Origin: Natronoglycomyces albus
GTDB lineage: Bacteria > Actinomycetota > Actinomycetes > Mycobacteriales > Micromonosporaceae
DNA: 64,000 bases
Assembly: GCF_016925535.1 (NCBI RefSeq)
Contig: NZ_CP070496.1
Location: 806,001 to 870,000 of the forward strand
Direction: 5' to 3'
Positions 13,174 to 28,094 of this stretch are shown one piece after another. The notes beneath the pieces were generated by a model that saw only the letters and a program-made list of their open reading frames with translations, had not been told where the DNA came from and searched no databases. Every line of letters starts with the position of its first letter. The stretch's first letter is position 1. Position numbers and translations under genes: made by a program.

Positions 13174-13628
13174 GCCCAACGCCGGGTTGCACAAACAGTC
13201 CGGGTATGGGATTCACTCCTAAGGTCGCAGGGCGCCGATGCGCTGGCATCACATTGGCGAAGGTGTTCCCCGCCGGTGATGAGGGTGCGCATGCGAATCA
13301 GATCAGTCCTCAGGATGGGACGGCCTCGACCACACTAGGCCGAGCTCTTCACCTTCGGGGCCCTAGGCGTAGTGGAGCGGCCGGATTCAATCGCGGCCGA
13401 CAGTTCGTCGGCGGTCGAGGCGGCTGCGCTAATGGCGGCGGAGAGTTCGTCGATCTGGGAGGCAACATGATCCTGACGGCCGTGACCGTGCGGCGCTAGA
13501 CGCACGTCGGATAGTTGACTCGTTATGAGGCGGGATTCCGCTGAGACACAACGAAGCGACCCCCACGAGCAAGTGAAGGTCGCTATACTGCGATCTGAGC
13601 GATAGATCGCCGTCCGGTCGGTGTTAGG
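13174..13628. other. gene-poor stretch at the start of the accessory region
   Basis: No firm gene is seen in 455 bases. This is the point where the conserved order (DUF4233 to ndk) breaks. A short minus-strand open frame (13335-13505) is listed separately. No tRNA, integrase or clear direct repeats marking an insertion were found here. Confidence 0.5.
13335..13505 (-). pseudogene. possible small helical protein or gene remnant
   Basis: From a GTG at 13505 a 56-residue frame reads into a regular helix (SQIDELSAAISAAASTADEL) and ends in a basic tail. The helix contains the pattern DELSAAI twice, and third codon positions are GC-rich as in real genes of this genome. There is no good ribosome site, so it could be the C-terminal remnant of a larger gene. 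The product is not recognised. Confidence 0.25.
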
Positions 13629-13805
13629 TCACCGCCGGGCGGCGCGCAACAGGCATCCGAAGTCCTCAACAGTCATAGAGAAGACAGGAGATGCGTTTCC
13701 GAGTTTCGAGTCCCTGATTTGCTGGTTCACGTCAGACCGTCGCGCTTCCACACACGCGCCACCGTTTCCTTGGCTACGGCTGGATTTGCGCCACTGCGTT
13801 TTCAT
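13629..13805 (-). CDS. DUF397 domain protein, partner of the XRE regulator
   Basis: A 58-residue protein too short for many gene finders. It begins MKTQWRKSSRSQGNGGACVE and continues with IRDSKLGNASPVF and a C-terminal VEDFGCLLRAARR. This is the DUF397 pattern (W-x-K-S-S-x-S, then A-C-V-E, then V-R-D-S-K). The ATG overlaps the stop of the upstream XRE gene by four bases (ATGA), and GGAGGA precedes it. XRE/DUF5753 and DUF397 pairs are common in actinomycetes (the BldB/WhiJ-like system) and are thought to work as regulator and antagonist, somewhat like toxin-antitoxin pairs. Confidence 0.85.
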   Translation of the reverse strand: MKTQWRKSSRSQGNGGACVEARRSDVNQQIRDSKLGNASPVFSMTVEDFGCLLRAARR

Positions 13806-14635
13806 AGATATTCCTCCAATGGGACTGTTGACCTGCGCACAGCGTTGAATACTTCCTCGTACCGCGATACTATGTCAACTTGCTCGATGTAGCGGCAACC
13901 GTCTAGTGCGTCGACGAAGACGAATGATGGCAGGTCATCGTTCAGTTTCATCAGCCAGAACGATCCGGCTAGGGTGGCCGCGTGAATCCTGTCAATGACA
14001 CGGATGTCGAAGTTTTCCAGCGCATTGACCTTCCGCAACATGGCCAGCTGTCCTTGCCGCACATCGTCGCCTGTGTCAGCTAGGAACTCAATCGCGTTCC
14101 TTCCAATGAAGTGCTCCACTTTGGGTGGGTCAGGCCGGTTATAGAACAATTCTTGGCGGCGTTCGCGCAGGTTCTTGACGGACTCGGCTACCTCGTTAGG
14201 GACTGGGAGCTGTACTTCCTGTAGAGCCTGGAGATATTCCCTCGTCTGCACGAGACCAGGTATCAGCTCGATTTCGATTGCCCGGATGTGAATGGCGTCC
14301 TGTTCGGCTTCTAGGAAGAGCGGGAAGTCAGGACTTGTGGCCTCTTTGGTTCCAGGGTCGTAGTAGTCCTCCCACCACCCGCGTTCAGCACCCCTGACAC
14401 GGAGTGTGTGCATATGGCTGCGGGCAGAGCTGCTGACTCCGTAGTAGTCGCAGAGCCCTTCGAGCTGCAAAAACTTGGTTCCTTGGAGCCCTTTTTCAAT
14501 GCGATCTACGGCCTTGTATTTGTAGCCGATGGCACTTGCGACTTGGGTGCAAGTATCTCCGCGCTCCATTCGCAGCTTGCGCAGTTTCGCGCCGAGGGTT
14601 CGTCTCGCAAGAGTTGGTTGAGCTTGCTTCGTCAT
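13802..14635 (-). CDS. XRE-family helix-turn-helix regulator with DUF5753 domain
   Basis: A 277-residue protein. An N-terminal helix-turn-helix (about 10-70; LGAKLRKLRMERGDTCTQVA, then a recognition-helix region with YKAVDRIEKG) is followed by a DUF5753 domain (about 90-275) with GWWEDYYDPG, IELIPGLVQTREYLQAL, RRQELFYN and a long C-terminal beta-rich part. It belongs to the WhiJ-type regulators paired with DUF397 proteins. The start at 14635 is chosen because the HTH begins soon after and a TATACT box lies 6 bases upstream; the frame stays open 27 codons further but across the promoter. It is divergent from the small-gene operon at 14920-16190, its likely target. Confidence 0.88.
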   Translation of the reverse strand: MTKQAQPTLARRTLGAKLRKLRMERGDTCTQVASAIGYKYKAVDRIEKGLQGTKFLQLEGLCDYYGVSSSARSHMHTLRVRGAERGWWEDYYDPGTKEATSPDFPLFLEAEQDAIHIRAIEIELIPGLVQTREYLQALQEVQLPVPNEVAESVKNLRERRQELFYNRPDPPKVEHFIGRNAIEFLADTGDDVRQGQLAMLRKVNALENFDIRVIDRIHAATLAGSFWLMKLNDDLPSFVFVDALDGCRYIEQVDIVSRYEEVFNAVRRSTVPLEEYL

Positions 14636-14641
14636 GGCGAG

Positions 14642-14647
14642 AGTATA
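14642..14647 (-). promoter_or_regulatory. putative -10 box of leaderless XRE promoter
   Basis: On the minus strand TATACT is followed by CTCGCC and then the ATG at 14635. The box is embedded in the first copy of the TATAGCCAAAA repeat, so a repressor bound there would block it. Confidence 0.55.
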
Positions 14648-14684
14648 GCCAAAAAGGTCACCACCAGAATGGCTATAGCCAAAA
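14644..14684. promoter_or_regulatory. paired operator-like repeats between XRE and the small-gene operon
   Basis: The 11-bp sequence TATAGCCAAAA occurs at 14644-14654 and again at 14674-14684, start to start 30 bases or about three helical turns. The second copy extends leftward to the perfect palindrome GGCTATAGCC (14671-14680). Both lie in the divergent promoter region, and the first covers the XRE -10 box. Autoregulation by the XRE protein is inferred. Confidence 0.5.
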
Positions 14685-14842
14685 GAGCTATCGCGTTTCC
14701 TGTTCCATATGAGCAACTTTTGGGCCTATCGTCGTGGCATGCCCGATATGGGCACCCTGTCTGCACGCTGGCGAGGCAGGGACGGGGCTGCCGACCTAAG
14801 AGACCCCCGAGGGTTGCGACCCGTAGCAGCCAGCACACAAAT

Positions 14843-14894
14843 GCCCGCCGCCGAGGAAGACAGATTTCGCGGTCTCGCATCCCCGGCGGCGGGC
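14843..14894 (+). promoter_or_regulatory. leader hairpin upstream of the small-gene operon
   Basis: GCCCGCCGCCG (14843-14853) pairs perfectly with CGGCGGCGGGC (14884-14894) around a 30-base loop. The ribosome site of the first gene (AAAGGAGAG) follows within ten bases, and GGAG there can pair with CTCC just before the ATG. The leader could therefore control translation of the operon. Confidence 0.4.
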
Positions 14895-14919
14895 CCTCGA
14901 CAAAGGAGAGTGTGCTCCC

Positions 14920-15144
14920 ATGCCTCAAGAAACGATACTCCCCGATGCCCGCCTTAGCGAGATCCAGACGCACTTGCATTTGCACAAAGCTCGTCCCTCG
15001 TGGCGCGGGCTGCGGTGTGGCTATTGCCGTGAACCGTGGGTGGACGGCGCGTGCCCCACCAAGCGCGATGCGACCGTGTCGCTGATGGCCCATCATCACC
15101 GCGCGGTATCGACGGTGGCTCTTCCGGTCGGTGAGTGCCTGTGA
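14920..15144 (+). CDS. small hypothetical protein with possible zinc knuckle
   Basis: A 74-residue protein, first of five coupled small genes. It has three cysteines in CGYC and a later GAC, with nearby histidines (AHHH), which could bind zinc; no known family was recognised. AAAGGAGAG lies about 11 bases upstream of the ATG. Its stop overlaps the next start by one base (TGATG), so translation is coupled. The gene is divergent from the XRE/DUF397 pair. Confidence 0.6.
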   Translation: MPQETILPDARLSEIQTHLHLHKARPSWRGLRCGYCREPWVDGACPTKRDATVSLMAHHHRAVSTVALPVGECL

Positions 15145-15443
15145 TGTCCTCACCTGAGACCTCGCCCAAGACCACGCCGAAGGCAGTCATCGAGTTCCCC
15201 TACGGGACGGCGGTATTCATGGTGTCCGCGGCCGCCGATCGAGGTTCGGCCGCCTCGCTGATGATGCAAGGACAATGCGAACCCATCGCCGTGGCCACCC
15301 TGCTGGTCAAGGACGGCCGGGTCACCGATGCGCTATGGCAGACCCCCTTCAGCGGCGACACCTGGCAGTTGCGCCGCCCGGTATTGATCAACCTGGCCGA
15401 GTCCGCCGCAGGGGCTTTGCTGCGCGAGGTGAGTAAACGATGA
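15144..15443 (+). CDS. small hypothetical protein, operon gene 2
   Basis: A 99-residue protein with a short polar N-terminus and a compact alternating pattern of strands and helices (VIEFPYGTAVFMVSAAADRG, ATLLVKDGRVTDALW). It has no signal peptide or membrane segment and one cysteine. The ATG at 15144 overlaps the previous stop by one base, and its own stop overlaps the next gene by four (ATGA). The family is not recognised; a small cytoplasmic alpha/beta fold is inferred. Confidence 0.62.
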   Translation: MSSPETSPKTTPKAVIEFPYGTAVFMVSAAADRGSAASLMMQGQCEPIAVATLLVKDGRVTDALWQTPFSGDTWQLRRPVLINLAESAAGALLREVSKR

Positions 15444-15712
15444 AGACGCCCCCGCGCAGCCCGGACGATTACTTGGGCGCAGCGAAAACACAGCTGAGCT
15501 ATCCGTTCTATCGGGGCAAGAAACCGGGCACGGTCGATATATTTCGCGGCCCTGACACCACGGCGACACCCATCGGCCGCGCCAGCTGGAACGCGAAGGC
15601 CAACCGGTGGGAAATCCGGTGGTATATCGCCGGAGACGGTTCCGGTCGCTGGTCAGGGTCAATCCTGCGTCAACTGCGCGACATCGTTCCCACCCCGGAG
15701 CCGACCTCATGA
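15440..15712 (+). CDS. small hypothetical protein, operon gene 3
   Basis: A 90-residue basic, aromatic-rich protein with a beta-strand pattern (YPFYRGKKPGTVDIFRG, ANRWEIRWYIAGDG) and a helical end. The tryptophan-rich strands recall small beta-barrel or ligand-binding folds, but no family was recognised. It overlaps the genes before and after it by four bases each (ATGA), so all are made from one mRNA at similar levels. Confidence 0.6.
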   Translation: MKTPPRSPDDYLGAAKTQLSYPFYRGKKPGTVDIFRGPDTTATPIGRASWNAKANRWEIRWYIAGDGSGRWSGSILRQLRDIVPTPEPTS

Positions 15713-16035
15713 CCGAACAGCAGCACGCAAGCAAGTCGCCCCCTGCGGGGAATGGCGAGCCCATCGGCACCTACCTGGGCACGATCACTATCAAGGGAAG
15801 CCAGATTGCCGCCTATGAACGGGAACGGCCCGAGGTGGTGTGGCTGTACGAGAACGGCACGGCCGTCGCCCGAGCCTTCCGCACACCCGCCGGTGGGGTG
15901 TGGCTCCAGTGGTGGAATCGGGCCACAATCAGTTCCGGTGCGGCCGCCGCGCACCTGCGGGACCGGCTGGCCGACCTGATGGCCGGAAACGAAGCCGATC
16001 CCGTGTCGGCCACCGACCCCATGGCACCGTGCTGA
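15709..16035 (+). CDS. small hypothetical protein, operon gene 4
   Basis: A 108-residue protein with a polar head and a beta-rich core (GTYLGTITIKGSQIAAYE, VVWLYENGTAVARAF, WLQWWNRATI) followed by a helix. It resembles gene 3 in having Trp-rich strands followed by a terminal helix (SILRQLRDIV in gene 3, AAHLRDRLADLM here), so the two may be distant duplicates. Four bases overlap gene 3 and one base (TGATG) overlaps gene 5. Confidence 0.6.
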   Translation: MTEQQHASKSPPAGNGEPIGTYLGTITIKGSQIAAYERERPEVVWLYENGTAVARAFRTPAGGVWLQWWNRATISSGAAAAHLRDRLADLMAGNEADPVSATDPMAPC

Positions 16036-16190
16036 TGGGCCCGCTGCTTCTCCTCACTGGCACGATCCTGGCAGTGGGCGTCATCTACGGGTGGGCGCAG
16101 CTGCGCAAACAGCAGGCACTCCCGCACGCGATCACCCTCACCGTCGGGTCGATCGCCCTAGCGCTATACCTCATGGCCAACGACGCCTAG
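16035..16190 (+). CDS. small two-helix membrane protein, operon gene 5
   Basis: A 51-residue protein, shorter than most gene-finder limits. Two hydrophobic helices (GPLLLLTGTILAVGVIYGW and ITLTVGSIALALYLM) are joined by a basic loop (AQLRKQQALPHA). The ATG overlaps the stop of gene 4 by one base. It is the only membrane protein of the operon. A strong hairpin follows at 16251. The family is not recognised. Confidence 0.6.
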   Translation: MGPLLLLTGTILAVGVIYGWAQLRKQQALPHAITLTVGSIALALYLMANDA

Positions 16191-16250
16191 CTCAACCGGT
16201 CGGGACCCGGCGCTACCCCGACCAGCGCGCCTCGACCCGGGCGCGCTCGC

Positions 16251-16280
16251 CGCCCCAGGCCACTCTCCGGGCCTGGGGCG
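16251..16280 (+). terminator. terminator hairpin after the small-gene operon
   Basis: CGCCCCAGGCC (16251-16261) and GGCCTGGGGCG (16270-16280) form a perfect 11-bp stem with an 8-base loop, 60 bases after the last stop of the operon. No T-run follows. Confidence 0.7.
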
Positions 16281-16471
16281 GCCCCAATGCCGTGAAACCA
16301 ACAATTATGAAAGAAGGCGAGTGTCGTTCGGGGCGTGGCGATTTCAGCTCGCAATCCACAGTTGCACTCCTGGTTTATCCTGATGGCGGCCCCAAGAAAG
16401 GCCCCTCTCTTCCTGTCCCCTAGGAGAAGAGCCCCCTAAGGTTCCTTTGCCACTACCCTCCGGGAGCCCCG

Positions 16472-18034
16472 ATGGCTAACCGCGTTGACGCCGACTTGGC
16501 GCAGATCAATCAAGCCTCTTTTAAGACTAAACAGGTCTACCAGAAACTCAAAGAAAACTCTGACTCCGTTGTCACGACCCTCAACGGGATCGACGGTCTC
16601 TTCGAAGGCAGCGCTGGCGACCAAGTGCGCCACTACCGCAAGGTGCTGCATGCCGAAGTCTCATCGGTGTCCAAGCACCTCGATCGGATCTCGCAAAGCC
16701 TGGCGCAAACAGCCGAGAACTACGGCGATTCCGACCGTGCCTCGGCAGAGAACATCTCGGCTCAAGGCAATCTGGCCGACCTTCTGCGCGGCGCCACCGG
16801 CGCCATCTCCGGAATAGGCGAGGGTATTGGTGGTTCCTCAGGCGGCAACGCCACTAGCACCGGGGCGATCCCGCCCTTCCCCTCCGGCGGCTCCGAACAG
16901 GAAATGTATGACTGGTGGGATTCTCTTAGCCCCCAACAGCAAGAGCAGTACCTGGCCAGCCTTGCGGACGACCCGGCCGCGCTAGCTGAGTTCGCCTGGG
17001 CCGACGGCCTTCCCGCTGACGCGCGGCACGAAGCCAACATGATGATTCTCGAAAGCTACGTGCTGGCGACCAACGACCCCAGTGCCGCCTCCCTGCTTGA
17101 GCGCATCAATACCTCGGGGGAGTCCCACCCGGACGACCAGCTCATGTTGCTGGGATTCCAACCGCCTGGACCAGACTCCGAAGCCCTCGTGGTGGTCTCC
17201 TCCGGTAACCCCGATGAAGCCGTCAACACCGGTGTCTATGTGCCTGGCACGACCGCCAGCCTCGACTCTATTTCTGGCGACATCGACCGCGCTGAGCTGC
17301 TGCGCGCCACCACCGAAGGAGTGTCGGGCGAAGACACGGCGATGGTCATGTGGCTGGGCTACGAGGCCCCACCAGAGGTGTTCAACACCTCCTCGCTCAA
17401 CCCCTTTGACTTCCGTGGCGGCGACGACGCGACCAACCCGCGCTACGCCGAGGCCGGAGCCGAAAACCTCTACAACTTCATGACCGGCCTGGATGTCGCC
17501 GACCAGCACAACGGCAACGGCACCACCACCGTCTTGGGACACAGCTATGGCTCCACCATGGTCGGACACGGCGCTTCCTACGGCGATGACTTCCGCGCTG
17601 ACAACATCATCGCCGTGGGCAGCCCCGGCATGGGCGTCAGTAGCGCCGATGAACTAGGAGTGGACAATGTCTACGCCATGACCACCCGAAACGACGTCAT
17701 CATGGGAACCCCACCGGGAGTACATGGCCCACAACCGGGCTCCAATGGCTTCGGAGCCGAGAGCCTGGCCAGCAGCGGAGCCGACGGACACTCCGGCTAC
17801 TGGGAAGAGAACAGCCAGAGCCTTCTCAACCAGGCCTATGTCATGGGCGGGATGGAAGACCAGGTCACGAACGGTTCCGCCTCCCTGCGCGGGCACACCG
17901 GTGACGTGATTTCCGAAACCGCCACTGGTGCCCGCGACTGGGCCTACGACCGGGCCTCGGACGCCGGAGGCTGGATGTCTGACCGCGCCTCAGACGTCGG
18001 CGATTGGTTCTCTAATCGAAACCCGTTCGGTTAA
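16472..18034 (+). CDS. WXG100-like/DUF1023 alpha/beta hydrolase, probable type VII secretion substrate
   Basis: A 520-residue protein in two parts. Residues 1-100 form a WXG100-like helical hairpin: the turn reads FEG (44-46) in place of WxG, and YGDSD (84-88) matches the YxxxD export signal at the end of the second helix. A Gly/Ser linker leads to a DUF1023 alpha/beta hydrolase with VYVPGT, WLGYEAPP and the nucleophile elbow GHSYGS (Ser358). The C-terminus repeats the pattern W-x-x-DRASD-x-G. Export through the type VII system at 37815-52187 is inferred. GGGAG lies 5 bases before the ATG. The next gene is 20 bases downstream and may encode a chaperone or immunity protein. Confidence 0.82.
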   Translation: MANRVDADLAQINQASFKTKQVYQKLKENSDSVVTTLNGIDGLFEGSAGDQVRHYRKVLHAEVSSVSKHLDRISQSLAQTAENYGDSDRASAENISAQGNLADLLRGATGAISGIGEGIGGSSGGNATSTGAIPPFPSGGSEQEMYDWWDSLSPQQQEQYLASLADDPAALAEFAWADGLPADARHEANMMILESYVLATNDPSAASLLERINTSGESHPDDQLMLLGFQPPGPDSEALVVVSSGNPDEAVNTGVYVPGTTASLDSISGDIDRAELLRATTEGVSGEDTAMVMWLGYEAPPEVFNTSSLNPFDFRGGDDATNPRYAEAGAENLYNFMTGLDVADQHNGNGTTTVLGHSYGSTMVGHGASYGDDFRADNIIAVGSPGMGVSSADELGVDNVYAMTTRNDVIMGTPPGVHGPQPGSNGFGAESLASSGADGHSGYWEENSQSLLNQAYVMGGMEDQVTNGSASLRGHTGDVISETATGARDWAYDRASDAGGWMSDRASDVGDWFSNRNPFG

Positions 18035-18054
18035 CTTAGCGGTAGGAGGAAACA

Positions 18055-18528
18055 ATGACCACCTTTGAGAGTCTTCGCAAGCCCGACGCCGCCGCCCGGA
18101 CGATGAGCGCCGGGGACGAGCTGGCCCAACAACTGCGCGAACACGGCATCGGAGAACTGAACTTCCGTCGTGCCGTAGCCTCCCCGTGGGGGCAGGATGC
18201 GAACACCACCAACTTCCATGTGGTGTCGTTCTACGAGATCCCCTTCTCCCAGCCCAGCGAACAGCAGGCCCGCCAGATTCTGCAACAGGTGCGAGACTAT
18301 TTGGTCGCACAGGGCATGATCGAGGGCTCACGAGACGGAGTGCGCTGGCTGGGCGATTCCTATGGAGACGCCGTCGTGCACAACCCAAAGACCGAATACA
18401 CCTACACTGCGGCGATCAAGAAGGGACACACTGGCCTGAGCATCTTTATTGCCAGTCCGCCCTATTCAAATCCCCATCCCGATGAGATATTCCACCCGGT
18501 ACGTCCCGATGCCACCGAGGAAGAATGA
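18055..18528 (+). CDS. hypothetical partner of the DUF1023 hydrolase
   Basis: A 157-residue acidic cytoplasmic protein with no cysteine, no signal peptide and no membrane helix. It has a helical N-terminus, then an alternating strand/helix pattern (NFHVVSFYEIPF, ARQILQQVRDYLVAQGMIEG, YTAAIKKGHTGLSIFIA). The ribosome site AGGAGG lies close before the ATG, and the gap to the hydrolase gene is only 20 bases. By position it could be a chaperone or an immunity protein of the exported hydrolase. No family was recognised. Confidence 0.65.
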   Translation: MTTFESLRKPDAAARTMSAGDELAQQLREHGIGELNFRRAVASPWGQDANTTNFHVVSFYEIPFSQPSEQQARQILQQVRDYLVAQGMIEGSRDGVRWLGDSYGDAVVHNPKTEYTYTAAIKKGHTGLSIFIASPPYSNPHPDEIFHPVRPDATEEE

Positions 18529-18558
18529 CCGGCCTCGACTAGCAGAAAGCCACACTTC

Positions 18559-20655: not shown

Positions 20656-22860
20656 GTGCGCATGGAACCTAGACAGCAGATCCTGATCCTGTGGAAAGCC
20701 CTGCTGAATTACTCCAATGACGGAGAAAACTGGACCTGGGAGGGCCGCGTACCCTCCGACTCCATCTCCGATGCCCAACAGCTCTTTTGCCTGCTCTACC
20801 CGGCCCAGGTCATTAAGGACCTGCGCTTTACCGACCCCAATAGCACCTCAGAGGACGTACTCGAAGCCCTCAGTCCCCTCGGTGACGCCGTCACGATCCC
20901 GCTCAAAGTCCTCGACATCATCCGCGAATACCTACGCCGCAACGCCGACGCGGACGGGCGACCTCTCTACCATGGCGCGGGCAATATGCGCCCCACTGAC
21001 CGCAGTGCAACCGCCAGTGAAGCCCAACTGCGCGTGGACTGCGTGGAGAGCTATTCGCTGTCCATCTCCATTTGCCTGGCGGCCCTGTCGTTCATTGTCC
21101 GCTTCCGTAACGAGACGCACCGCCGTGACCTCGCCGATGATCTCGACCAAGCCGAACTGGCAGCCCGCCGCCGCCTGACTGGGGCGCTCACCGGCCTTCT
21201 GCGCAGCTTCTCGGTCTACACCTTTGACGCCACCTCGCCTGAGGGACGAACTCTCTCCGAATTCATTCACACCGAGGATGTGCCCGTCTCGCGACTGCCC
21301 GAGATCTTTCGCGAACGGATGCGCGACGTCGAAGCCAACCTCTATGGTGTCCAAACCGGATCTGGCCGTCCCCGCGACCTGGAGTACTCCAATAAGCTCT
21401 TCGAGGTCGGCTGGTCCTGGGGCGTGATCGAAAATGCCCCCGTCATCGAACTCACCGCCGGTGTCTCCCATCAAGAGGAAGGCGTCGCCCAAGACGCGCC
21501 CTACCTGTACTTCACCGTGATGGCGCTCGAAAGCATCATGGATCTCTTCTCCTCCTCCGTCATGCGAGAAGGACTCGTGCGTGACGAGGAACTGTGGCTC
21601 GTCCAAGCTCTGCAATACCGCTGGGACATCACGCAACGCTACTGGGCCACCATCGCCTCCTTCGGAGATGGCCGACGCTGGCCACTGGAGGACCTTCCCT
21701 GGCGTACCTCCGACGGTGAGGAATACGACTACTACAACCTCCTCGTCTGCGCCATCGTCACCCGCGAGTTCGCCCGCTTGCCCGGCGATGAGAATCTACA
21801 ACGCGTGGGGGCTGTGCTCTCCGAGCTGGCCAATCGCGGCCGCATTACCCGCCGCGCCATGAAAGGCGAACAGAACACCCGCTGGCATTTCCCCGGCATT
21901 CCCACCTCACTAGACGGCATCGAAAAACTCGACGGACCCAGTATGACCTGGTACTCCGTCGACTTCCCGGCCCTGTTGCTCAAACGATGCATTCACACCG
22001 CCTCTTTTATGAATGACATTCCGCAGCGGGCCCGCATGCTGCAACTGGTCGATGAAATATGGGCCCACCTAGAGACGCGCCGTATACGCTCCGGACCCGG
22101 AGCGCAACTGTGGGACCAACCCGCCCAAGCCTTCGACGCCATCTCCCGCACATTCGATCGGCCCTCCTGGCACGTCAACATGCGGGTCATGGAGGCCCTT
22201 GTCCAAGCAACCCTACAAACGGCGGAGCCGCCGGCCCGTAGTTCGCAGCTCGAACAACTTGCCCGCGAGATGCTGGCCGAAGCCGAACACCTCTACGATC
22301 AGGAGCTACTCACCGGCTCGGCTCGCTCTGGGCCCACCCTGAGCGAGCAGGTCCGCGTGTGGGGCCACAGCATCAACCGCGCCAAGTCGATTCTGGAATC
22401 CCGACCGGCCACCGCCTACGCCATCGTGTCCAATGTGCTGGTGGAACTGGATCAGCACATTGACGCTCGTGAAGCGGCAATGAGGGGAGAGTTAACGACA
22501 TGCTGGTCTTTTCCACCTCGGACAAAGGCGGAACCGGAAGGTCGGTCACCAGCGCGAACGTGGCCTACCGGGCGGCCCTGCAAGGAAACAACGTCTGCTA
22601 TGTCGATTTCGACTTCGGATCCCCCACCGCCGGGGCGGTTTTCTCGATCGACCACCTGTTGCACGGCACCGAAAGCAACGGCGTCCACTCCTATTTGCAA
22701 GGGCGCGCCGCCGAACCGGTTCGCCAAGCCGTATGGGGAGCCTCCGGCCGGGACGTGTTGCGTACGAGGCCCGATCGGGCCGGAGAACTGGTCCTTATGC
22801 CCGGTGACCACTCTGGCGGTGAATTTCCCGGAAATCAAGGCGTGGTCGATGCCTGTATGA
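20656..22860 (+). CDS. SCO2524-family-like protein, frame probably broken near its 3' end
   Basis: The frame codes for 734 residues, but only about 612 look genuine. The N-terminus (RQQILILWKALLNYS, ISDAQQLFCLLYPAQVIKDL) and the large helical body resemble, from memory, the SCO2524 family of actinomycetes. After 22490 the frame runs over the next gene and becomes Arg/Pro/Ser/Thr-rich, like a shadow frame. A TAA at 22493-22495 is out of frame by one; removing one G of the GGGG run (22484-22487) would end the protein as MRES. The GTG at 20656 or the ATG at 20662 is the start. It is first of three plus-strand genes. Function unknown. Confidence 0.75.
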   Translation: MRMEPRQQILILWKALLNYSNDGENWTWEGRVPSDSISDAQQLFCLLYPAQVIKDLRFTDPNSTSEDVLEALSPLGDAVTIPLKVLDIIREYLRRNADADGRPLYHGAGNMRPTDRSATASEAQLRVDCVESYSLSISICLAALSFIVRFRNETHRRDLADDLDQAELAARRRLTGALTGLLRSFSVYTFDATSPEGRTLSEFIHTEDVPVSRLPEIFRERMRDVEANLYGVQTGSGRPRDLEYSNKLFEVGWSWGVIENAPVIELTAGVSHQEEGVAQDAPYLYFTVMALESIMDLFSSSVMREGLVRDEELWLVQALQYRWDITQRYWATIASFGDGRRWPLEDLPWRTSDGEEYDYYNLLVCAIVTREFARLPGDENLQRVGAVLSELANRGRITRRAMKGEQNTRWHFPGIPTSLDGIEKLDGPSMTWYSVDFPALLLKRCIHTASFMNDIPQRARMLQLVDEIWAHLETRRIRSGPGAQLWDQPAQAFDAISRTFDRPSWHVNMRVMEALVQATLQTAEPPARSSQLEQLAREMLAEAEHLYDQELLTGSARSGPTLSEQVRVWGHSINRAKSILESRPATAYAIVSNVLVELDQHIDAREAAMRGELTTCWSFPPRTKAEPEGRSPARTWPTGRPCKETTSAMSISTSDPPPPGRFSRSTTCCTAPKATASTPICKGAPPNRFAKPYGEPPAGTCCVRGPIGPENWSLCPVTTLAVNFPEIKAWSMPV

Positions 22861-23420
22861 AGCTGTTCTTGGCTCTAGAGCAGGAATTCGACGTTTCCTT
22901 TATCGACCTGAGCGCCGGGCGTTCCCACGCCACCGAGGTAGCGATGGCCGCCACAGCGTCGGACACGATTCGCCGCCGTGTCAAGACCCGCTGGCTGGTG
23001 TTTCACCGCTGGACCCGGCAGCATGTCATCGCCGCCGACAGCCTAGTGCGCGGCGAGCGCGGCCTACTACAGACCGGAGTCGCGCACGGTCACGACGAAC
23101 GCGCGCTGGAACAGTGCATCAAGTTCGTCCGAACCGCCGTGGCCGACCCGAACTCCAAGGAGATGGCCGGACTCGCCCCAACTCAGGTCTCATGGCTGCG
23201 CCAGTGCGATTCCGACCTACACCGCCTGGCCAAGGAATACCGGGTCGGACGCATCAATCTGCTCGACACCGTCCCGCTGGACCCGGTCTTGCAATGGCGC
23301 GAACAGCTGCTCACCGACGTCGATGTCCACAATCGCAAGATCGCCAACCACAAGACCGTGGACGCTTTCGACCGGCTGGCCAAGAGCATCACCGACGACG
23401 AGGCCTGGCCGCGCATGTAA
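22500..23420 (+). CDS. MinD/ParA-like protein with variant P-loop (SCO2523-family-like)
   Basis: A 306-residue protein starting MLVFSTSDKGGTGRSVTSAN. The deviant Walker A motif of MinD/ParA proteins is KGGxGK[ST]; here the second lysine is an arginine (KGGTGRS), so nucleotide handling may be altered. FDFGSPTAG, where ParA proteins have their Walker A' Asp, and FIDLSAGRS (Walker B-like) are kept. The rest is helical. From memory this is the SCO2523 family of variant P-loop proteins. It starts 4 bases after the likely true stop of the previous gene, with GGGGAGAG as ribosome site. The partner genes are on both sides. Confidence 0.82.
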   Translation: MLVFSTSDKGGTGRSVTSANVAYRAALQGNNVCYVDFDFGSPTAGAVFSIDHLLHGTESNGVHSYLQGRAAEPVRQAVWGASGRDVLRTRPDRAGELVLMPGDHSGGEFPGNQGVVDACMKLFLALEQEFDVSFIDLSAGRSHATEVAMAATASDTIRRRVKTRWLVFHRWTRQHVIAADSLVRGERGLLQTGVAHGHDERALEQCIKFVRTAVADPNSKEMAGLAPTQVSWLRQCDSDLHRLAKEYRVGRINLLDTVPLDPVLQWREQLLTDVDVHNRKIANHKTVDAFDRLAKSITDDEAWPRM

Positions 23421-23438
23421 AGCCACTGGAGCGTGAGT

Positions 23439-24533
23439 ATGGAAACCGATGTTGAATACACCGAACACGACGGGGACCTCGAAGTCGAGCGCCTGGGCAT
23501 GTCCCACCTGTCGGTCGAACTGGGACATCTGTACGCCGACGACTTCACCGGCTCGGCCGACCGCCTCTTCGAACAAATGTGCGCTGCGGCGGGCTGGTAT
23601 GAGGCGGCCAAGGCTGAACTATCCCGCAAACTCGGCAGCCGCCGCATGCGCGTGAGCACCTGCTATCTGATCGACGACTATCAGGCCCGCCAGATCCCCA
23701 GGCCCGTCGAAGCTATCGCCCTGCTACTCAAAGCCGCCCATGAGGCCGGGGTAACGATCGACTACATCGGCCGCGAGTCCGCGTGCGCTCTCATCGAGAC
23801 CAGGAACGAATTTGCCGCCGACTCCACCCATGAAATCGAAATCGCCCGCCTCGTAGCCGGGCAGATCGTCCAGGAACCCCCTCAAGGCGCCACTGGTTTC
23901 CGCCCCCGAGTTGAAGAATCGGGCTGGCTGTGCAACGGCCGCCGCTCACCCGGGCAGAACCTAGAAGCGATGGGCGAACCCTCCCGCTGGGAAGCCCCGG
24001 AACAGTACGCCCGGTCGCGCCTGGGGCACACCATTTTCCTTGACACCCAATTGTGGGAAGACAAACCAGACGACCGCATCTGGACCTGCCCCATGCTCGC
24101 CGCCGTGTGGCAGCTGCTGCGGCTGGGGCTCTTGCGCAACCACGGCCGCAGTGTCGCCCAACCGGAGTTCATTGACTTCCCCGCTGCGATCTCGGGTCCC
24201 GACAAGAACCTGCCATTGCATGTCAAAGCCGAGCGCGCCGCGAAGCTGACCAGCGATGACGAGGACATGTGGTTGCCAGATGAATGGCACAAAATGCCCG
24301 CGGTATTGCAGGTGAACCCGGAAGCGCGTCCGTTTACCGCCTATCGGACGATGAGCATCATGTCCGGAGCCTTCCTCGAAACCGAACACGCCGTCCGGAC
24401 GATCTGCTCCATGGTCCAAGTCTCGGAGGAGGTCCGCCAGGTGGTGCAAGAATCAGCCGACCGCGAAGGTGTCTTCTGCCTGCCGCCAGAAGTCCCCGAC
24501 CGCATCAGCTACGTCTTTCAAGGGCATTGGTAA
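23439..24533 (+). CDS. SCO2522-family-like protein
   Basis: A 364-residue protein without signal or membrane segments. Conserved-looking segments are MSHLSVELGHLYADDF, VSTCYLIDDY, TIDYIGRESACAL, the GWLCNGRRSP loop, TIFLDTQLWED and MLAAVWQLLRLGLLR; from memory these match the SCO2522 family, always found with SCO2521, 2523 and 2524. The ATG at 23439 is preferred to the GTG at 23433 because GGAG lies 8 bases before it. It follows the variant P-loop gene closely and converges on the SCO2521-like gene with only 26 bases between the stops. Function unknown. Confidence 0.78.
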   Translation: METDVEYTEHDGDLEVERLGMSHLSVELGHLYADDFTGSADRLFEQMCAAAGWYEAAKAELSRKLGSRRMRVSTCYLIDDYQARQIPRPVEAIALLLKAAHEAGVTIDYIGRESACALIETRNEFAADSTHEIEIARLVAGQIVQEPPQGATGFRPRVEESGWLCNGRRSPGQNLEAMGEPSRWEAPEQYARSRLGHTIFLDTQLWEDKPDDRIWTCPMLAAVWQLLRLGLLRNHGRSVAQPEFIDFPAAISGPDKNLPLHVKAERAAKLTSDDEDMWLPDEWHKMPAVLQVNPEARPFTAYRTMSIMSGAFLETEHAVRTICSMVQVSEEVRQVVQESADREGVFCLPPEVPDRISYVFQGHW

Positions 24534-24559
24534 GCCGCCGAGGGCTCACCTAGGCGACC

Positions 24560-25582
24560 TCAGTAACGGAGCCGCCCCACATCTGCCGAGGTTGAATAAC
24601 CGCGGCTTTGCATGCTGAGCAATTCCCGTGTCAGGGCAGTGGCCGAGCTGTTGACACGGCCTTCGATCTGTCGGGTCAGCGTCTCCCACTGCCGGGTGAA
24701 GCCGGGCACCTTGTCCAAGGCCTCCCACACAAACCACAGCGACTCGTTCACTCGGGCCTTGGGCATCCACAGGTGCATGAGGTGATCGACCACTGGTTGC
24801 AGCATCCGCAGCGTTTCTTCGGGATTCCGGTTCGTGAACGGAGCCCGCTCCAACTCGGCCAGCAAAGTGGTCAAGAGCCAATCGTGGACAGCGACGTCTT
24901 CGGCCGCATGTGCCAACGCCAAGGAGTCGGGCTCATCAGTCACGAAGTACAGCAACCGGTCGGTGGGGCTGTCGAGCGTCAGCGACACCGGTGCGGCCTC
25001 GGGCGCGTAGCGTTTCGGGATCGCGATCCAGCGCAGCTTCGTGCGCGCCGTACGCAGAGGGGACTCCCGATCCAGCAACGAATGCGCCTGCACCTCGTGA
25101 AAGATGTGGGTGGCCAACGCCGTGGTGTCCAGATGCTTCGGTCCCTGCTGCGCGCGCAGCAAACCGCCAATGAGGCGCTGCGGGTCGCTTTGGGAAATAC
25201 TTTCGACCTTTCCAGGCTGGGAGAGATAGTACGACCACGGCATACGGCGGGCCTTGGTGCCGATTTTGATGGATCCGTACGTGCTTCCCTGCAACAGGTG
25301 TCCGCCGGTGATGGTGGCCCGCGAATTCATGGTGCCGATGACCCGCACCGAACCGTTGTGACCATTGGCCCGGCGTGCGTGCAAGTCCTCATTCTTAGGC
25401 GCGAGCGGAACCAAACAGTCAACCCCGGTCAACAACGTAGGCGAACAGGCGTGTTGGATCGGTCGCTTCCACTGCCGGGCGCGCTCTCCGGCTACCAGTG
25501 TCAACAGTTGTGAAGCTTGGTCGGTGGTGACTCCGTGCGAGTGATGTAGCAGTCCGCTGTGGATTTCACCGATGGTGATCAT
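24560..25582 (-). CDS. SCO2521-family-like protein
   Basis: A 340-residue cytoplasmic protein. Segments such as ITIGEIHSGLLHHS, ACSPTLLTGVDC, PWSYYLSQPG, VHDWLLTTLL and LMHLWMPKARV match, from memory, the SCO2521 family, the fourth member of the SCO2521-2524 set. It is on the opposite strand to the other three. Its ATG overlaps the stop of the VOC membrane gene by four bases (ATGA), so the two form an operon and may act together. Function unknown. Confidence 0.78.
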   Translation of the reverse strand: MITIGEIHSGLLHHSHGVTTDQASQLLTLVAGERARQWKRPIQHACSPTLLTGVDCLVPLAPKNEDLHARRANGHNGSVRVIGTMNSRATITGGHLLQGSTYGSIKIGTKARRMPWSYYLSQPGKVESISQSDPQRLIGGLLRAQQGPKHLDTTALATHIFHEVQAHSLLDRESPLRTARTKLRWIAIPKRYAPEAAPVSLTLDSPTDRLLYFVTDEPDSLALAHAAEDVAVHDWLLTTLLAELERAPFTNRNPEETLRMLQPVVDHLMHLWMPKARVNESLWFVWEALDKVPGFTRQWETLTRQIEGRVNSSATALTRELLSMQSRGYSTSADVGRLRY

Positions 25583-27147
25583 GGAGAGTCCTGTCGTTCG
25601 GTGATGGCGAGTCCATGTCCGTCAGGGTCAGTAAAGGCGGCGGCCCGTAGCTGGAAGTTCTGTCCCTCCAACGCATCGGCGGGTTCGCCCGCGAAGTCGA
25701 CCCCATTGGTGCGCATGGTGCGGTAGGTAGATTCCAAGTCGCCGACCTCGAAGGTCAAGTGCATGATTCCCTGCGCTTCATCGGGAGCATCGTCGCGCTG
25801 CCACAGCAGGATGCGACCGAATCCGGCTTCCAACAGGGCAGCCTCGTCAGTGCGGTCGACGACGATGAGACGCAGGTTCTGGGTATAGAACTCCACGGAG
25901 CGGTCAAGGTTGGCCACCACGAGAGTGGCGGCGACGTCGCGCACGTCAGTCAACGACAGGCCCGAGGCCACCGGGCCGTTGACAGAATCGGCGCTGGCGC
26001 TGGTGACCTCGGCAGTGGCGTTGTCTGCCGGTGGATTGGCCGACGGGCTGTCGCTGGGCGCGGCCGCGTCGTGGCGTGGGCCCGAACCAGCAGCCGGCCC
26101 GAGCTCGATGGGTTCTGAGGCCGCCGGGGAACCTGATTCGGAGTGCTGGCTTGCCACGAGGTGCGAAGCCGCGGTCTTCTGCTCCTCGGAGGCCGGTTCG
26201 GGAGCGTTTTCCGGTCCGACCGGCTCGTTCGGATCCGGCTTCGGTAGATTCTCGGCCGTGGAATCGGCCAGGTCATCGGCCGCGTCAGCCTTGGCGAGAG
26301 TGTCCTTGGCGTCGGCCTTGGTAGCCTCGGACGCCGCCGGAGGCGCGTTTTCCGGCCCCACTTCGGCGGCCGGGTCGGGTTTGGGCAGGGGAGCGTCCGC
26401 GACCGTAGCCTCCGAATCGTCGGTGACGGCGGGAAGGACCGCGGTGTCGGCGGTGACTTTGGATTGCACTGCCGTAGTCGTCTCAGATTCGCTGGCGGCG
26501 CTGTTGAAAGCCTGGTCGAGGTCGTCCATCGAGTTCACTTCGGTCTTATCGACCGGTGGGGCCTGTCGAGGCGTTGGGTCGTCTTCGAAGATGAGGTCCT
26601 CGAGCCGATGTTGCGCGATTGGCGGGTGCCGGAGGGGCTCGGGAAAGTGCCGCTGGGAGAACTCGGCGGTCACAAAACCCACTGAGATGGCCAGGAATGT
26701 GAAGGAGATTAGCGCGATGTTAAGGCTTCCGGCTCCGAACGCCATGGCGCCGGTGTACCCGGCGAGGATGAGAAACGCGATCGCCCCGATGGCGTAGGAG
26801 GTCTTCCAACGCGCGCGCCGGTCGGCGTTGAGGACGGTGCCGATGGCCTCCCCACCAGCGGCATGCTGGCGATCATAGAGGACTTCCTTCTCTTCACCGT
26901 GCATCGCCCAATAGGTGAGGTTGCGCTGATACTGCAGCGACTTTTGTTGCGCGTCGGTCAGCGGGGGCAGTTTGCCGCCCTTGGTAGCGGTCGCACCCTT
27001 GGGCGCCGGACCCTTTTGTTGCGGCACCTTGCGTGCCGGAGCCTTGCGAGCCGGGGCCTTGGCCCGCTGGGCCGGTGGCTTCCGTGCACCGCCACCCCGC
27101 GCGGGCTTTGGTGCCTGTCGCGGCGGTTGCCGTGGGGGCTGGCGCAT
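25579..27147 (-). CDS. membrane-anchored protein with C-terminal VOC (glyoxalase-like) domain
   Basis: A 522-residue protein of unusual layout: a basic Lys/Arg/Pro/Ala-rich N-terminus (1-60), a segment of about 60 residues, two membrane helices (about 118-165), a long acidic disordered stretch (about 190-395) and a C-terminal VOC domain (about 400-522; VRDVAATLVVANLDRSVEFY, MHLTFEVGDLES, AFTDPDGHGLAI). The acidic stretch repeats a unit around LPKPDP-x-VGPENAP twice. The single VOC module is half of a usual enzyme, so it may dimerise or only bind ligand. It is coupled to the SCO2521-like gene. GGTGG lies upstream of the ATG. Confidence 0.8.
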   Translation of the reverse strand: MRQPPRQPPRQAPKPARGGGARKPPAQRAKAPARKAPARKVPQQKGPAPKGATATKGGKLPPLTDAQQKSLQYQRNLTYWAMHGEEKEVLYDRQHAAGGEAIGTVLNADRRARWKTSYAIGAIAFLILAGYTGAMAFGAGSLNIALISFTFLAISVGFVTAEFSQRHFPEPLRHPPIAQHRLEDLIFEDDPTPRQAPPVDKTEVNSMDDLDQAFNSAASESETTTAVQSKVTADTAVLPAVTDDSEATVADAPLPKPDPAAEVGPENAPPAASEATKADAKDTLAKADAADDLADSTAENLPKPDPNEPVGPENAPEPASEEQKTAASHLVASQHSESGSPAASEPIELGPAAGSGPRHDAAAPSDSPSANPPADNATAEVTSASADSVNGPVASGLSLTDVRDVAATLVVANLDRSVEFYTQNLRLIVVDRTDEAALLEAGFGRILLWQRDDAPDEAQGIMHLTFEVGDLESTYRTMRTNGVDFAGEPADALEGQNFQLRAAAFTDPDGHGLAITERQDSP

Positions 27148-27686
27148 AGTATTTAGCCACCTACTTCATGCGTGCTGGAGTCGGTTGTACGGGCGGGTTT
27201 TCGGTGTGCCTGGTCCCGACGCGAAGCCTGGGCGCTTTAGCGGTCGACATCGGCGACCGTCTTGGCCCGTGCCACGGGTTAGATGCCCAGGATTCAACGC
27301 CCGCACCATTGTTCTTCCGGCAGTTTCGGAGCAGAGGTCAATTCACGGCTGCTATCGCGCTGGCTTGCGCGTTGCCCCCGTTCGCCTCATACCACTGGTT
27401 CACGGGTGCCTGGCGAGAGCCCACCTGAATAATTCTCCCCCGAAATGGCGGGATGTCTGAAATGCTACGTGGACCTTGCCACAGACACAAGGTCGCAATC
27501 TGCACGTGCAGTAATCCGACACATTCCGCGTGCAGTAATCTGGTGTGTGTCCAGTTGCGGTCGTGGCCCTCAGTGCCCTCGCAGCCGGACTGTCTTTTCT
27601 CAATTCGAATCGCACGCGCGTCGGTGCTGACATCCGCAATTTTCTCCCTGAGTGTCCCATCGTCGTCGCGGTTAGGGGTGCAGCAC
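27148..27686. other. intergenic region upstream of ndk, right end of the accessory block
   Basis: No convincing gene in 539 bases. This is the right-hand border of the block that separates DUF4233 from ndk. It holds a pair of 12-bp direct repeats (listed separately). A plus-strand open frame leading into ndk has no conserved sequence before the ndk start. Confidence 0.45.
27505..27540. repeat. pair of 12-bp direct repeats upstream of ndk
   Basis: CGTGCAGTAATC occurs at 27505-27516 and 27529-27540, 24 bases apart start to start. The first copy is preceded by TGCA, so that TGCACGTGCA is a palindrome. They may be regulator sites for ndk, which starts 147 bases downstream. Confidence 0.45.
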
Positions 27687-28094
27687 ATGTCCGAGAATCA
27701 GCGGACACTGGTCCTCATCAAGCCGGACGCTGTTGAGCGTGGCCTGGTGGGAGACATTATCGCTCGTCTGGAGCGCAAGGGCCTGAAGATCACCGCCCTG
27801 CAAATGCGCACTATGGACAGTGAATTGGCGGAGGCTCACTACGAGGAACACCTCAACAAGCCATTCTTCCCGGGGCTGAAGGAATTCATGACCTCTAAGC
27901 CACTGGTGAGCCTGATAGTCGAAGGCGATCAAGCGATTTCGGTAGTGCGACTTCTCGCCGGAGCCACCGATGCTCGCAAGGCGGAGCCAGGCACCATTCG
28001 TGGAGACTTCGGGCTGTCCAACCAGCTCAACCTTATCCACGCTTCGGACTCCGAAGAGTCGGCAAAGCGCGAAATTGACCTGTGGTTCTCCTAA
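27687..28094 (+). CDS. ndk: nucleoside diphosphate kinase
   Basis: A 135-residue enzyme that transfers the gamma-phosphate between nucleoside triphosphates and diphosphates through a phospho-histidine. [17 protein letters not shown] opens the fold, and the active-site motif NLIHASDS carries the catalytic His near residue 117. The length is that of the family. The ATG at 27687 has AGGGG about 8 bases upstream. In most actinobacteria it directly follows folC-DUF4233; here it stands 14.5 kb away. A 19-bp hairpin ends the transcript. Confidence 0.96.

What the first reader, a model, noticed from the sequence alone, without database searches (positions are those of the whole stretch)
20656..27147. 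Conserved unknown module: SCO2524-2523-2522-like operon converging on SCO2521-like plus a VOC membrane protein
Three plus-strand genes and one coupled minus-strand gene match, from memory, four families known only by Streptomyces locus numbers. They include a ParA/MinD-like protein with an altered P-loop. Joint retention in a different genome, next to a membrane-anchored VOC protein in the same operon as the SCO2521-like gene, suggests a real multi-protein system, possibly a membrane-associated positioning or sensing machine.
Basis: partly seen in the sequence, partly recalled or inferred. Interest (0 to 1): 0.72.

Follow-up and report, generated by a model that had tools for sequence, protein, structure and literature searches.

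The report
Four-gene actinobacterial core with changing partners
Four genes of unknown function that are inherited together in filamentous soil bacteria sit beside one of several alternative partner genes, one of which looks like an immune sensor joined to a cell-killing enzyme, which suggests an undescribed immune-like signalling system rather than a cell-positioning machine.

Summary
The four genes belong to NCBIfam families SCO2524, SCO2523 (P-loop Lys to Arg), SCO2522 and SCO2521, all over cut-off, beside a membrane protein with a VOC domain. Co-inheritance is complete in the sample: the same 23 of 246 class genomes carry all four, none a subset, always in one cluster.

The core's neighbour varies. 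Of 77 named loci with SCO2521, 41 have a membrane DUF6879 protein, 19 (all Glycomyces) the VOC protein, 12 a DUF4062-NACHT-HEAT protein, 2 another membrane protein, 3 none of these; none has two types. A 2026 preprint reports DUF4062 as a TIR-like NADase of antiphage defence. A methyltransferase (SCO2525), the DUF6879 protein and an FAD oxidase form a cassette that can sit away from the core.

Best reading: a regulated conflict (immune-like) signalling core with interchangeable partners (about 0.45). Main rival: growth and development, since SCO2525 is cited as morphogenetic. A Min-like positioning machine is unlikely. The VOC link is seen in one lineage inside a conserved chromosome block, so it is weak.

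The parts
20656..22480 (+). SCO2524 family protein, conserved part (608 residues); frame stays open to 22860
   Evidence: NF040567 697 bits, residues 1-608; only scattered weak Pfam hits in 39 members; best solved match E 0.022, not convincing
22500..23420 (+). SCO2523 family variant P-loop protein, MinD/ParA-like
   Evidence: NF040564 460 bits; NF047398 KGGVGR-variant ATPase 44 bits, below its cut-off of 90; CbiA 26.4 bits, cut-off 25.4
22524..22544 (+). altered P-loop KGGTGRS
   Evidence: Arg in the P-loop lysine position in 80 of 80 loci
23433..24533 (+). SCO2522 family protein
   Evidence: NF040566 356 bits; scattered weak Pfam hits in 40 members, no PDB match at E 5
24560..25582 (-). SCO2521 family protein, converging on SCO2522
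   Evidence: NF040565 298 bits; scattered weak Pfam hits in 40 members, no PDB match at E 5
25579..27147 (-). 2TM - disordered-looking linker - VOC protein, 5' of and overlapping SCO2521 by 4 bases
   Evidence: PF00903 E 3.7e-15; two hydrophobic segments; beside SCO2521 in 19 of 19 Glycomyces loci with SCO2521
26668..26793 (-). hydrophobic hairpin of the VOC protein (residues 119-160)
   Evidence: hydropathy only
25603..25929 (-). VOC domain (residues about 407-515)
   Evidence: Pfam match; 58-66% identical to 10 Glycomyces proteins aligned, of 19

Best explanation
An obligate four-protein signalling core (SCO2524, the variant P-loop protein SCO2523, SCO2522, SCO2521) that senses a disturbance and controls one interchangeable partner. 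In the commonest form the partner is a membrane DUF6879 protein with a small-molecule methyltransferase (SCO2525) and often an FAD oxidase. In a second form it is a DUF4062-NACHT-HEAT protein, predicted to work as an NLR-like switch whose TIR-like domain destroys NAD+. In the window's lineage the only partner candidate seen is the 2TM-VOC protein, perhaps a membrane-tethered ligand-binding sensor. SCO2523 would act as a nucleotide-binding or degenerate scaffold, not a cycling ATPase. The whole would be an actinobacterial conflict (immune-like) system. Shown: co-inheritance, gene order, mutually exclusive neighbours, domains. Inferred: that the proteins form one pathway, that the partner is the output, that the trigger is phage or stress, and that VOC fills the partner role.
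For: Complete co-occurrence: the same 23 of 246 genomes for each of four families. SCO2524 and SCO2523 are 0-4 bases apart in 65 of 78 loci. Exclusive neighbours within 9 kb: 41 DUF6879, 19 VOC, 12 NACHT, 2 other membrane protein, 3 none, 0 with two types, of 77. The DUF4062-NACHT-HEAT protein is a dedicated neighbour: of 25 matches at 797 bits or more in 121 genomes, 22 lie within 1.5 kb of SCO2521; genomes without SCO2521 show at most 442 bits (positions compared; one search scored at most 4 candidates a genome). DUF4062 and HEAT over cut-off in 4 of 4 scanned, NACHT in 3 of 4. Predicted catalytic SITE[LA]EY, P-loop and DGLDE kept in the 10 full-length copies of 12. DUF4062 is reported as a TIR-like NADase with antiphage activity (preprint PMC13174449; abstract and part 1 of Results read). 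MinD/ParA-like domains predicted inactive occur in conflict systems of multicellular bacteria, some actinobacterial (PMC7159879, passages only). Partner type follows the core tree. SCO2525 passes its cut-off in 43 of 68 core-positive and 0 of 12 core-negative genomes (Fisher p 3e-5 without correction for kinship).
Against: No toxic domain was recognised in the window's five proteins. PADLOC-DB gives ten proteins only weak hits, the best 23 bits on the SCO2523 P-loop. SCO2523 was not found on plasmids or viral contigs, and the core sits among housekeeping genes in Streptomyces and Glycomyces, unlike many mobile defence systems. SCO2525 is cited as morphogenetic. NACHT and VOC lie 5' of SCO2521, the DUF6879 protein 3', so they are alternative neighbours, not occupants of one exact position. 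In four genomes with the NACHT form the SCO2525-DUF6879-oxidase cassette persists elsewhere, so NACHT need not replace it.
Confidence: 0.45

Rival explanations
1. A growth and development module: the core plus methyltransferase controls hyphal growth and differentiation through a small molecule, and defence-like neighbours are incidental.
For: SCO2525 is cited as a putative methyltransferase with a morphogenetic role (PMC6344877 passage) or needed for normal growth (PMC11472566 section 18); the cited 2004 paper is not held. sco2521-sco2526 is called an operon in the HupS regulon. Stable chromosomal sites.
Against: Patchy: 64 of 121 genomes of the family and 23 of 246 of the class. SCO2525 has no match in the window's genome and in 6 of 6 Glycomyces genomes searched, all of which keep the core. 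Does not explain the dedicated DUF4062-NACHT partner. A growth defect could also be autoimmunity (inference).
Confidence: 0.27
2. A small-molecule pathway: methyltransferase, amino-acid oxidase and VOC or DUF6879 proteins make, modify and sense a metabolite, with the core as an assembly or enzyme complex.
For: SCO2525 matches the NNMT/PNMT/TEMT family; a DAO-family oxidase lies beside SCO2521 in 25 of 41 DUF6879 loci and travels with SCO2525 and the DUF6879 protein in 4 of 4 fetched unlinked cassettes.
Against: The core persists without SCO2525 in 6 of 6 Glycomyces genomes and the window's genome; no known fold recognised in three core proteins.
Confidence: 0.16
3. A ParA/MinD-like spatial positioning machine anchored to the membrane by the VOC protein.
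For: MinD/ParA-like sequence of SCO2523 with a membrane protein nearby.
Against: P-loop Lys is Arg in 80 of 80; MinD and ParA equivalog models far below cut-off; the neighbour is not constant.
Confidence: 0.07
4. The VOC gene is a bystander kept next to SCO2521 only because the chromosome block is conserved (a claim about the VOC gene alone, not exclusive of the others).
For: valS, a folC-like gene, DUF4233, GNAT, ndk and trpEG are kept around it too; among named loci seen with SCO2521 only in Glycomyces; a relative of its N-terminus without VOC lies about 5 kb from SCO2521 in Stackebrandtia albiflava.
Against: Same strand and directly adjacent in 19 of 19 Glycomyces loci (gaps -1 to 58 bases) and overlapping in the window; the window's genome has no DUF6879 match.
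Confidence: 0.5

Closest known systems
NCBIfam SCO2521/2522/2523/2524 families (NF040565, NF040566, NF040564, NF040567)
   Same: All four window proteins are members over cut-off
   Different: The window's genome lacks SCO2525 and DUF6879, and SCO2521 is inverted, as in 55 of 77 loci
Swarozyc, DUF4062 TIR-like NADase antiphage system (preprint PMC13174449)
   Same: DUF4062 domain in the alternative partner of the core in other genomes
   Different: There fused to NACHT and HEAT and placed beside the core; the window's genome has no match at 1e-100 to that protein
NTP-dependent conflict systems of multicellular bacteria (PMC7159879, passages only)
   Same: Fixed core plus variable partners, inactive-looking MinD/ParA domain, STAND-type NTPase in some forms
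   Different: Core proteins match none of the Pfam domains of those systems; that the systems are built of vWA, MoxR, VMAP or GAP1 parts is from the passages and recall
MinD/ParA positioning ATPases
   Same: Sequence family of SCO2523
   Different: P-loop Lys replaced by Arg; no fixed membrane or cargo partner
Bleomycin-resistance/glyoxalase (VOC) proteins
   Same: C-terminal domain of the neighbour
   Different: Membrane-anchored through a long linker; two of four usual metal ligands seem absent (motif recalled)

Membership tests
NCBIfam SCO2524/2523/2522/2521 | score over curated cut-off | tested here: met
   697/300, 460/200, 356/200, 298/150 bits
SCO2521-2525 module | all four core genes in one cluster | tested here: met
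   window 20656-25582; 23 of 23 genomes, consecutive in 22, with a gap of 1.1 kb between 2523 and 2522 in G277
SCO2521-2525 module | SCO2525 methyltransferase | tested here: not met
   no match at 1e-20 in the window's genome
SCO2521-2525 module | membrane DUF6879 protein | tested here: not met
   no DUF6879 match at 0.001 in the window's genome
MinD/ParA positioning ATPase | P-loop KGGxGK[ST] with catalytic Lys (motif recalled) | tested here: not met
   KGGTGRS; Arg in 80 of 80
MinD/ParA positioning ATPase | dynamic membrane or nucleoid localisation | not testable with these tools
   needs microscopy
DUF4062-NACHT defence protein | DUF4062 and NACHT domains | tested here: not met
   window's genome: no match at 1e-100. 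In other loci DUF4062 over cut-off in 4 of 4 scanned, NACHT in 3 of 4
Antiphage defence system | protects cells from phage | not testable with these tools
   needs plating assays; PADLOC-DB gives only weak hits
VOC metalloenzyme | VOC fold | tested here: met
   PF00903 57 bits, cut-off 20.6
VOC metalloenzyme | metal-binding His/Glu set | tested here: inconclusive
   first His and last Glu positions look replaced in 11 of 11 aligned; motif recalled, no structure

The most novel reading that the evidence does not exclude
A new class of actinobacterial immune system: a four-protein core, three of whose proteins have no recognisable relatives, built round a degenerate MinD-like switch, that licenses interchangeable executors: a membrane DUF6879 effector with its methyltransferase and oxidase, an NLR-like DUF4062 NADase, or, in the window's lineage, a ligand-sensing 2TM-VOC protein.
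Probability: 0.35. Interest if true: 0.85.

Novelty: new variant of a known kind. Interest (0 to 1): 0.62.

Why it matters
One scan of public genomes found 447 stretches that encode a relative of SCO2523, and three of the four core proteins have no convincing solved relative by sequence. The link to a DUF4062-NACHT protein and the exclusive neighbours give the core its first testable function. It may also explain why a methyltransferase mutant of S. coelicolor is cited as abnormal: loss of a restraint on an effector rather than of a developmental enzyme (inference).

Tried and rejected
Pfam scans of 40 SCO2522, 39 SCO2524 and 40 SCO2521 members gave only weak hits in one or two members each. 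PDB profile searches gave nothing for SCO2522 and SCO2521 at E 5 and a non-convincing 0.022 for SCO2524. SCO2522 is not detectably related to SCO2521 or SCO2524. Of 53 genomes among 246 of the phylum with SCO2523 hits, only 4 passed the cut-off; the rest are taken as generic MinD/ParA proteins. The VOC protein could not be searched across genomes (searches failed), so its occurrence away from SCO2521 is untested. Considered and dropped: simple replacement of the DUF6879 protein by NACHT (four NACHT genomes keep the cassette elsewhere); that the converging layout is peculiar. My first Walker-B pattern matched only 2 of 7 NACHT proteins because it was too strict; looser patterns and direct reading found it in all 10 full-length ones.
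Full report
What is there. SCO2524, 2523 and 2522 run on the plus strand; SCO2521 converges on them from the minus strand and overlaps by 4 bases the gene before it, a 2TM-linker-VOC protein. The P-loop of SCO2523 is KGGTGRS; Arg replaces the P-loop Lys in 80 of 80 loci (78 KGGTGRS, 2 KGGTGRT). Two other motifs are strongly kept: DFDFGSPT in 79 of 80 and D[LI]S[AG]GRS in 78 of 80, so the fold is under selection although the Lys is gone.

Is it a system? Yes. Each of the four families was searched in the same 246 genomes of the class: 23 of 246 have each family over cut-off, the same 23 every time, no genome holding a subset; the genes form one cluster in all 23. They are consecutive in 22; in G277 the DUF6879 protein lies between 2523 and 2522. 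In the 22 other genomes SCO2521 is on the strand of the rest; only the window's genome has it inverted. Among phylum genomes 4 of 246 pass the SCO2523 cut-off. In the window's own family 64 of 121 genomes carry SCO2521. A scan of named genomes gave 447 stretches encoding a relative of SCO2523; the best 80 were held as L145-L224. The window's core is nearest to Glycomyces (51% identical). SCO2524 and SCO2523 lie 0-4 bases apart in 65 of 78 loci, and SCO2521 is inverted in 55 of 77.

What stands next to it. In 41 of 77 loci SCO2521 is followed by a membrane protein with a C-terminal DUF6879 (Streptomyces, Frankia, Streptosporangiaceae, Rhodococcus, many Micromonosporaceae and others). DUF6879 matched 33 of 34 members scanned at E 0.1 or better, the first of them just under the cut-off. 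Two hydrophobic segments were resolved in 17 of 41, one in 20, three in 1 and none in 3 by a crude hydropathy scan, so 'two-helix' is an inference for the rest. That protein is on SCO2521's strand in 41 of 41 and overlaps it by 4 bases in 20 of 41. SCO2525, an NNMT-like methyltransferase (NF040568), is within 9 kb in 38 of these 41. In 12 of 77 loci (Plantactinospora, Asanoa, some Micromonospora, Paractinoplanes, Actinoplanes, one Dactylosporangium, one actinobacterial MAG) a gene of about 1,450 residues lies near SCO2521 instead, divergent from it; four were scanned by Pfam and show DUF4062, NACHT and HEAT repeats (NACHT over cut-off in three). One copy is cut by a contig end and one has a broken-looking frame (L209, L195). 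In 2 of 77 it is another membrane protein (no Pfam match over cut-off in either), in 19 of 77 (all Glycomyces) the 2TM-VOC protein, in 3 none of these. No locus has two types.

Chance or dedication? In 121 genomes, 25 stretches match the DUF4062-NACHT-HEAT protein at 797 bits or more; 22 of them lie within 1.5 kb of SCO2521, by comparing positions. The other three lie elsewhere in genomes that also have an adjacent copy. Of the 14 weaker matches one (531 bits, G530) is adjacent and 13 are not. Adjacent copies occur in 22 of the 64 genomes with SCO2521. Genomes without SCO2521 have only hits of 442 bits or less. One search scored at most four candidates a genome, so weaker paralogues may be missed. 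A random copy would fall that close about once in 700 (rough estimate). The predicted catalytic motif SITE[LA]EY, the P-loop and DGLDE are kept in all 10 full-length copies among the 12.

A detachable cassette. In four genomes with the NACHT form SCO2525 was found far from the core, and those four places were fetched: each holds SCO2525, a DUF6879 membrane protein and a DAO-family oxidase together, without core genes. Other distant places (for example in G530 and G544) were not fetched. The same oxidase lies next to SCO2521 in 25 of 41 DUF6879-type loci, and a second DAO-family gene in 7 of 41. SCO2525 passes its cut-off in 43 of 68 core-positive and 0 of 12 core-negative genomes tested. The window's genome and 6 of 6 Glycomyces genomes searched have no SCO2525; the window's genome has no DUF6879 match and 1 of the 6 has one, on another contig.

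The VOC protein. It is beside SCO2521 in 19 of 19 Glycomyces loci that hold SCO2521 (gaps -1 to 58 bases) and in the window. But the block valS, folC-like, DUF4233, GNAT, core, VOC, ndk, trpEG is conserved between the window and Glycomyces (trpEG seen in 3 of the loci compared), so this is a single lineage and cannot by itself show function. A small relative of its N-terminus, without VOC, lies about 5 kb from SCO2521 in the DUF6879-type locus of Stackebrandtia albiflava, which the core tree places next to the VOC group (support 96). The VOC domain is 58-66% identical to the window's in the 10 Glycomyces proteins aligned, yet two of the usual metal ligands (recalled motif) appear replaced, which fits binding better than catalysis. 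That is inference.

How it most likely works. A 2026 preprint shows DUF4062 to be a TIR-like NADase giving antiphage defence by abortive infection (PMC13174449; abstract and part 1 of Results read). NACHT-HEAT proteins are switches of the NLR kind (established knowledge). MinD/ARA-type domains predicted inactive occur as parts of conflict systems of multicellular bacteria (PMC7159879; passages only). With the strict core and exclusive neighbours, the simplest reading is a regulated conflict system in which the core gates an executor. The core tree shows the NACHT-type cores as one group (11 of its 12 rows carry NACHT, one has none of the partners) and the VOC-type cores as another, with DUF6879 cores around both: partner type goes with core type. 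It is a quick tree of 58 rows without bootstrap; it warns of long branches and of the window's odd letter make-up.

What speaks against it. No antiphage activity has been tested; PADLOC-DB gives only weak matches to ten proteins; SCO2523 was not found on plasmids or viral contigs. Three papers name these loci: sco2521-sco2526 as an operon in the HupS regulon and SCO2525 as necessary for normal growth (PMC11472566 section 18), SCO2525 with a morphogenetic role (PMC6344877 passages), and a remark on SAM-related mutants (PMC3017869 passages). The mutant paper they lead to (Gehring 2004, seen in a reference list) is not held and was not read. A developmental role therefore remains a serious rival. 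No description of the system was found with searches, which cover open-licence papers only and mostly listings.

Limits. The 80 named loci are those closest to the window's SCO2523 out of 447, so proportions of partner types are not those of all actinobacteria. Neighbour types were called by similarity within 9 kb of SCO2521, and some loci are cut by contig ends.

Noticed in passing
window 22480-22860: The SCO2524 frame lacks its usual stop and runs 126 residues over SCO2523 in another frame; a TAA four bases before the SCO2523 start is one frame off. Late frame change or sequencing error; the conserved part is whole.
   Followed up: partly
L225-L228: SCO2525, a DUF6879 membrane protein and a DAO oxidase form a cassette away from the core in four genomes whose core is beside a NACHT protein.
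   Followed up: partly
L186 15233-18952, L192: A WD40-KAP NTPase protein and a second methyltransferase lie between SCO2521 and SCO2525 in two Catellatospora loci.
   Followed up: partly
L205; G582: A Dactylosporangium vinaceum genome carries two copies of the module, both near DUF4062-NACHT proteins.
   Followed up: no
window 13174-18558: About 5 kb separates the DUF4233 gene from the GNAT gene, which are close together in Glycomyces. It holds an HTH-DUF5753 regulator (13802-14716, minus) and a WXG100-like alpha/beta hydrolase (16472-18034).
   Followed up: partly
window 27453-28094: The ndk frame starts about 80 codons before the conserved protein (match from residue 82); the true start is probably near 27690.
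   Followed up: no
L223: A contig labelled Candidatus Melainabacteria carries core genes; probably an actinobacterial contig binned wrongly, not tested.
   Followed up: no
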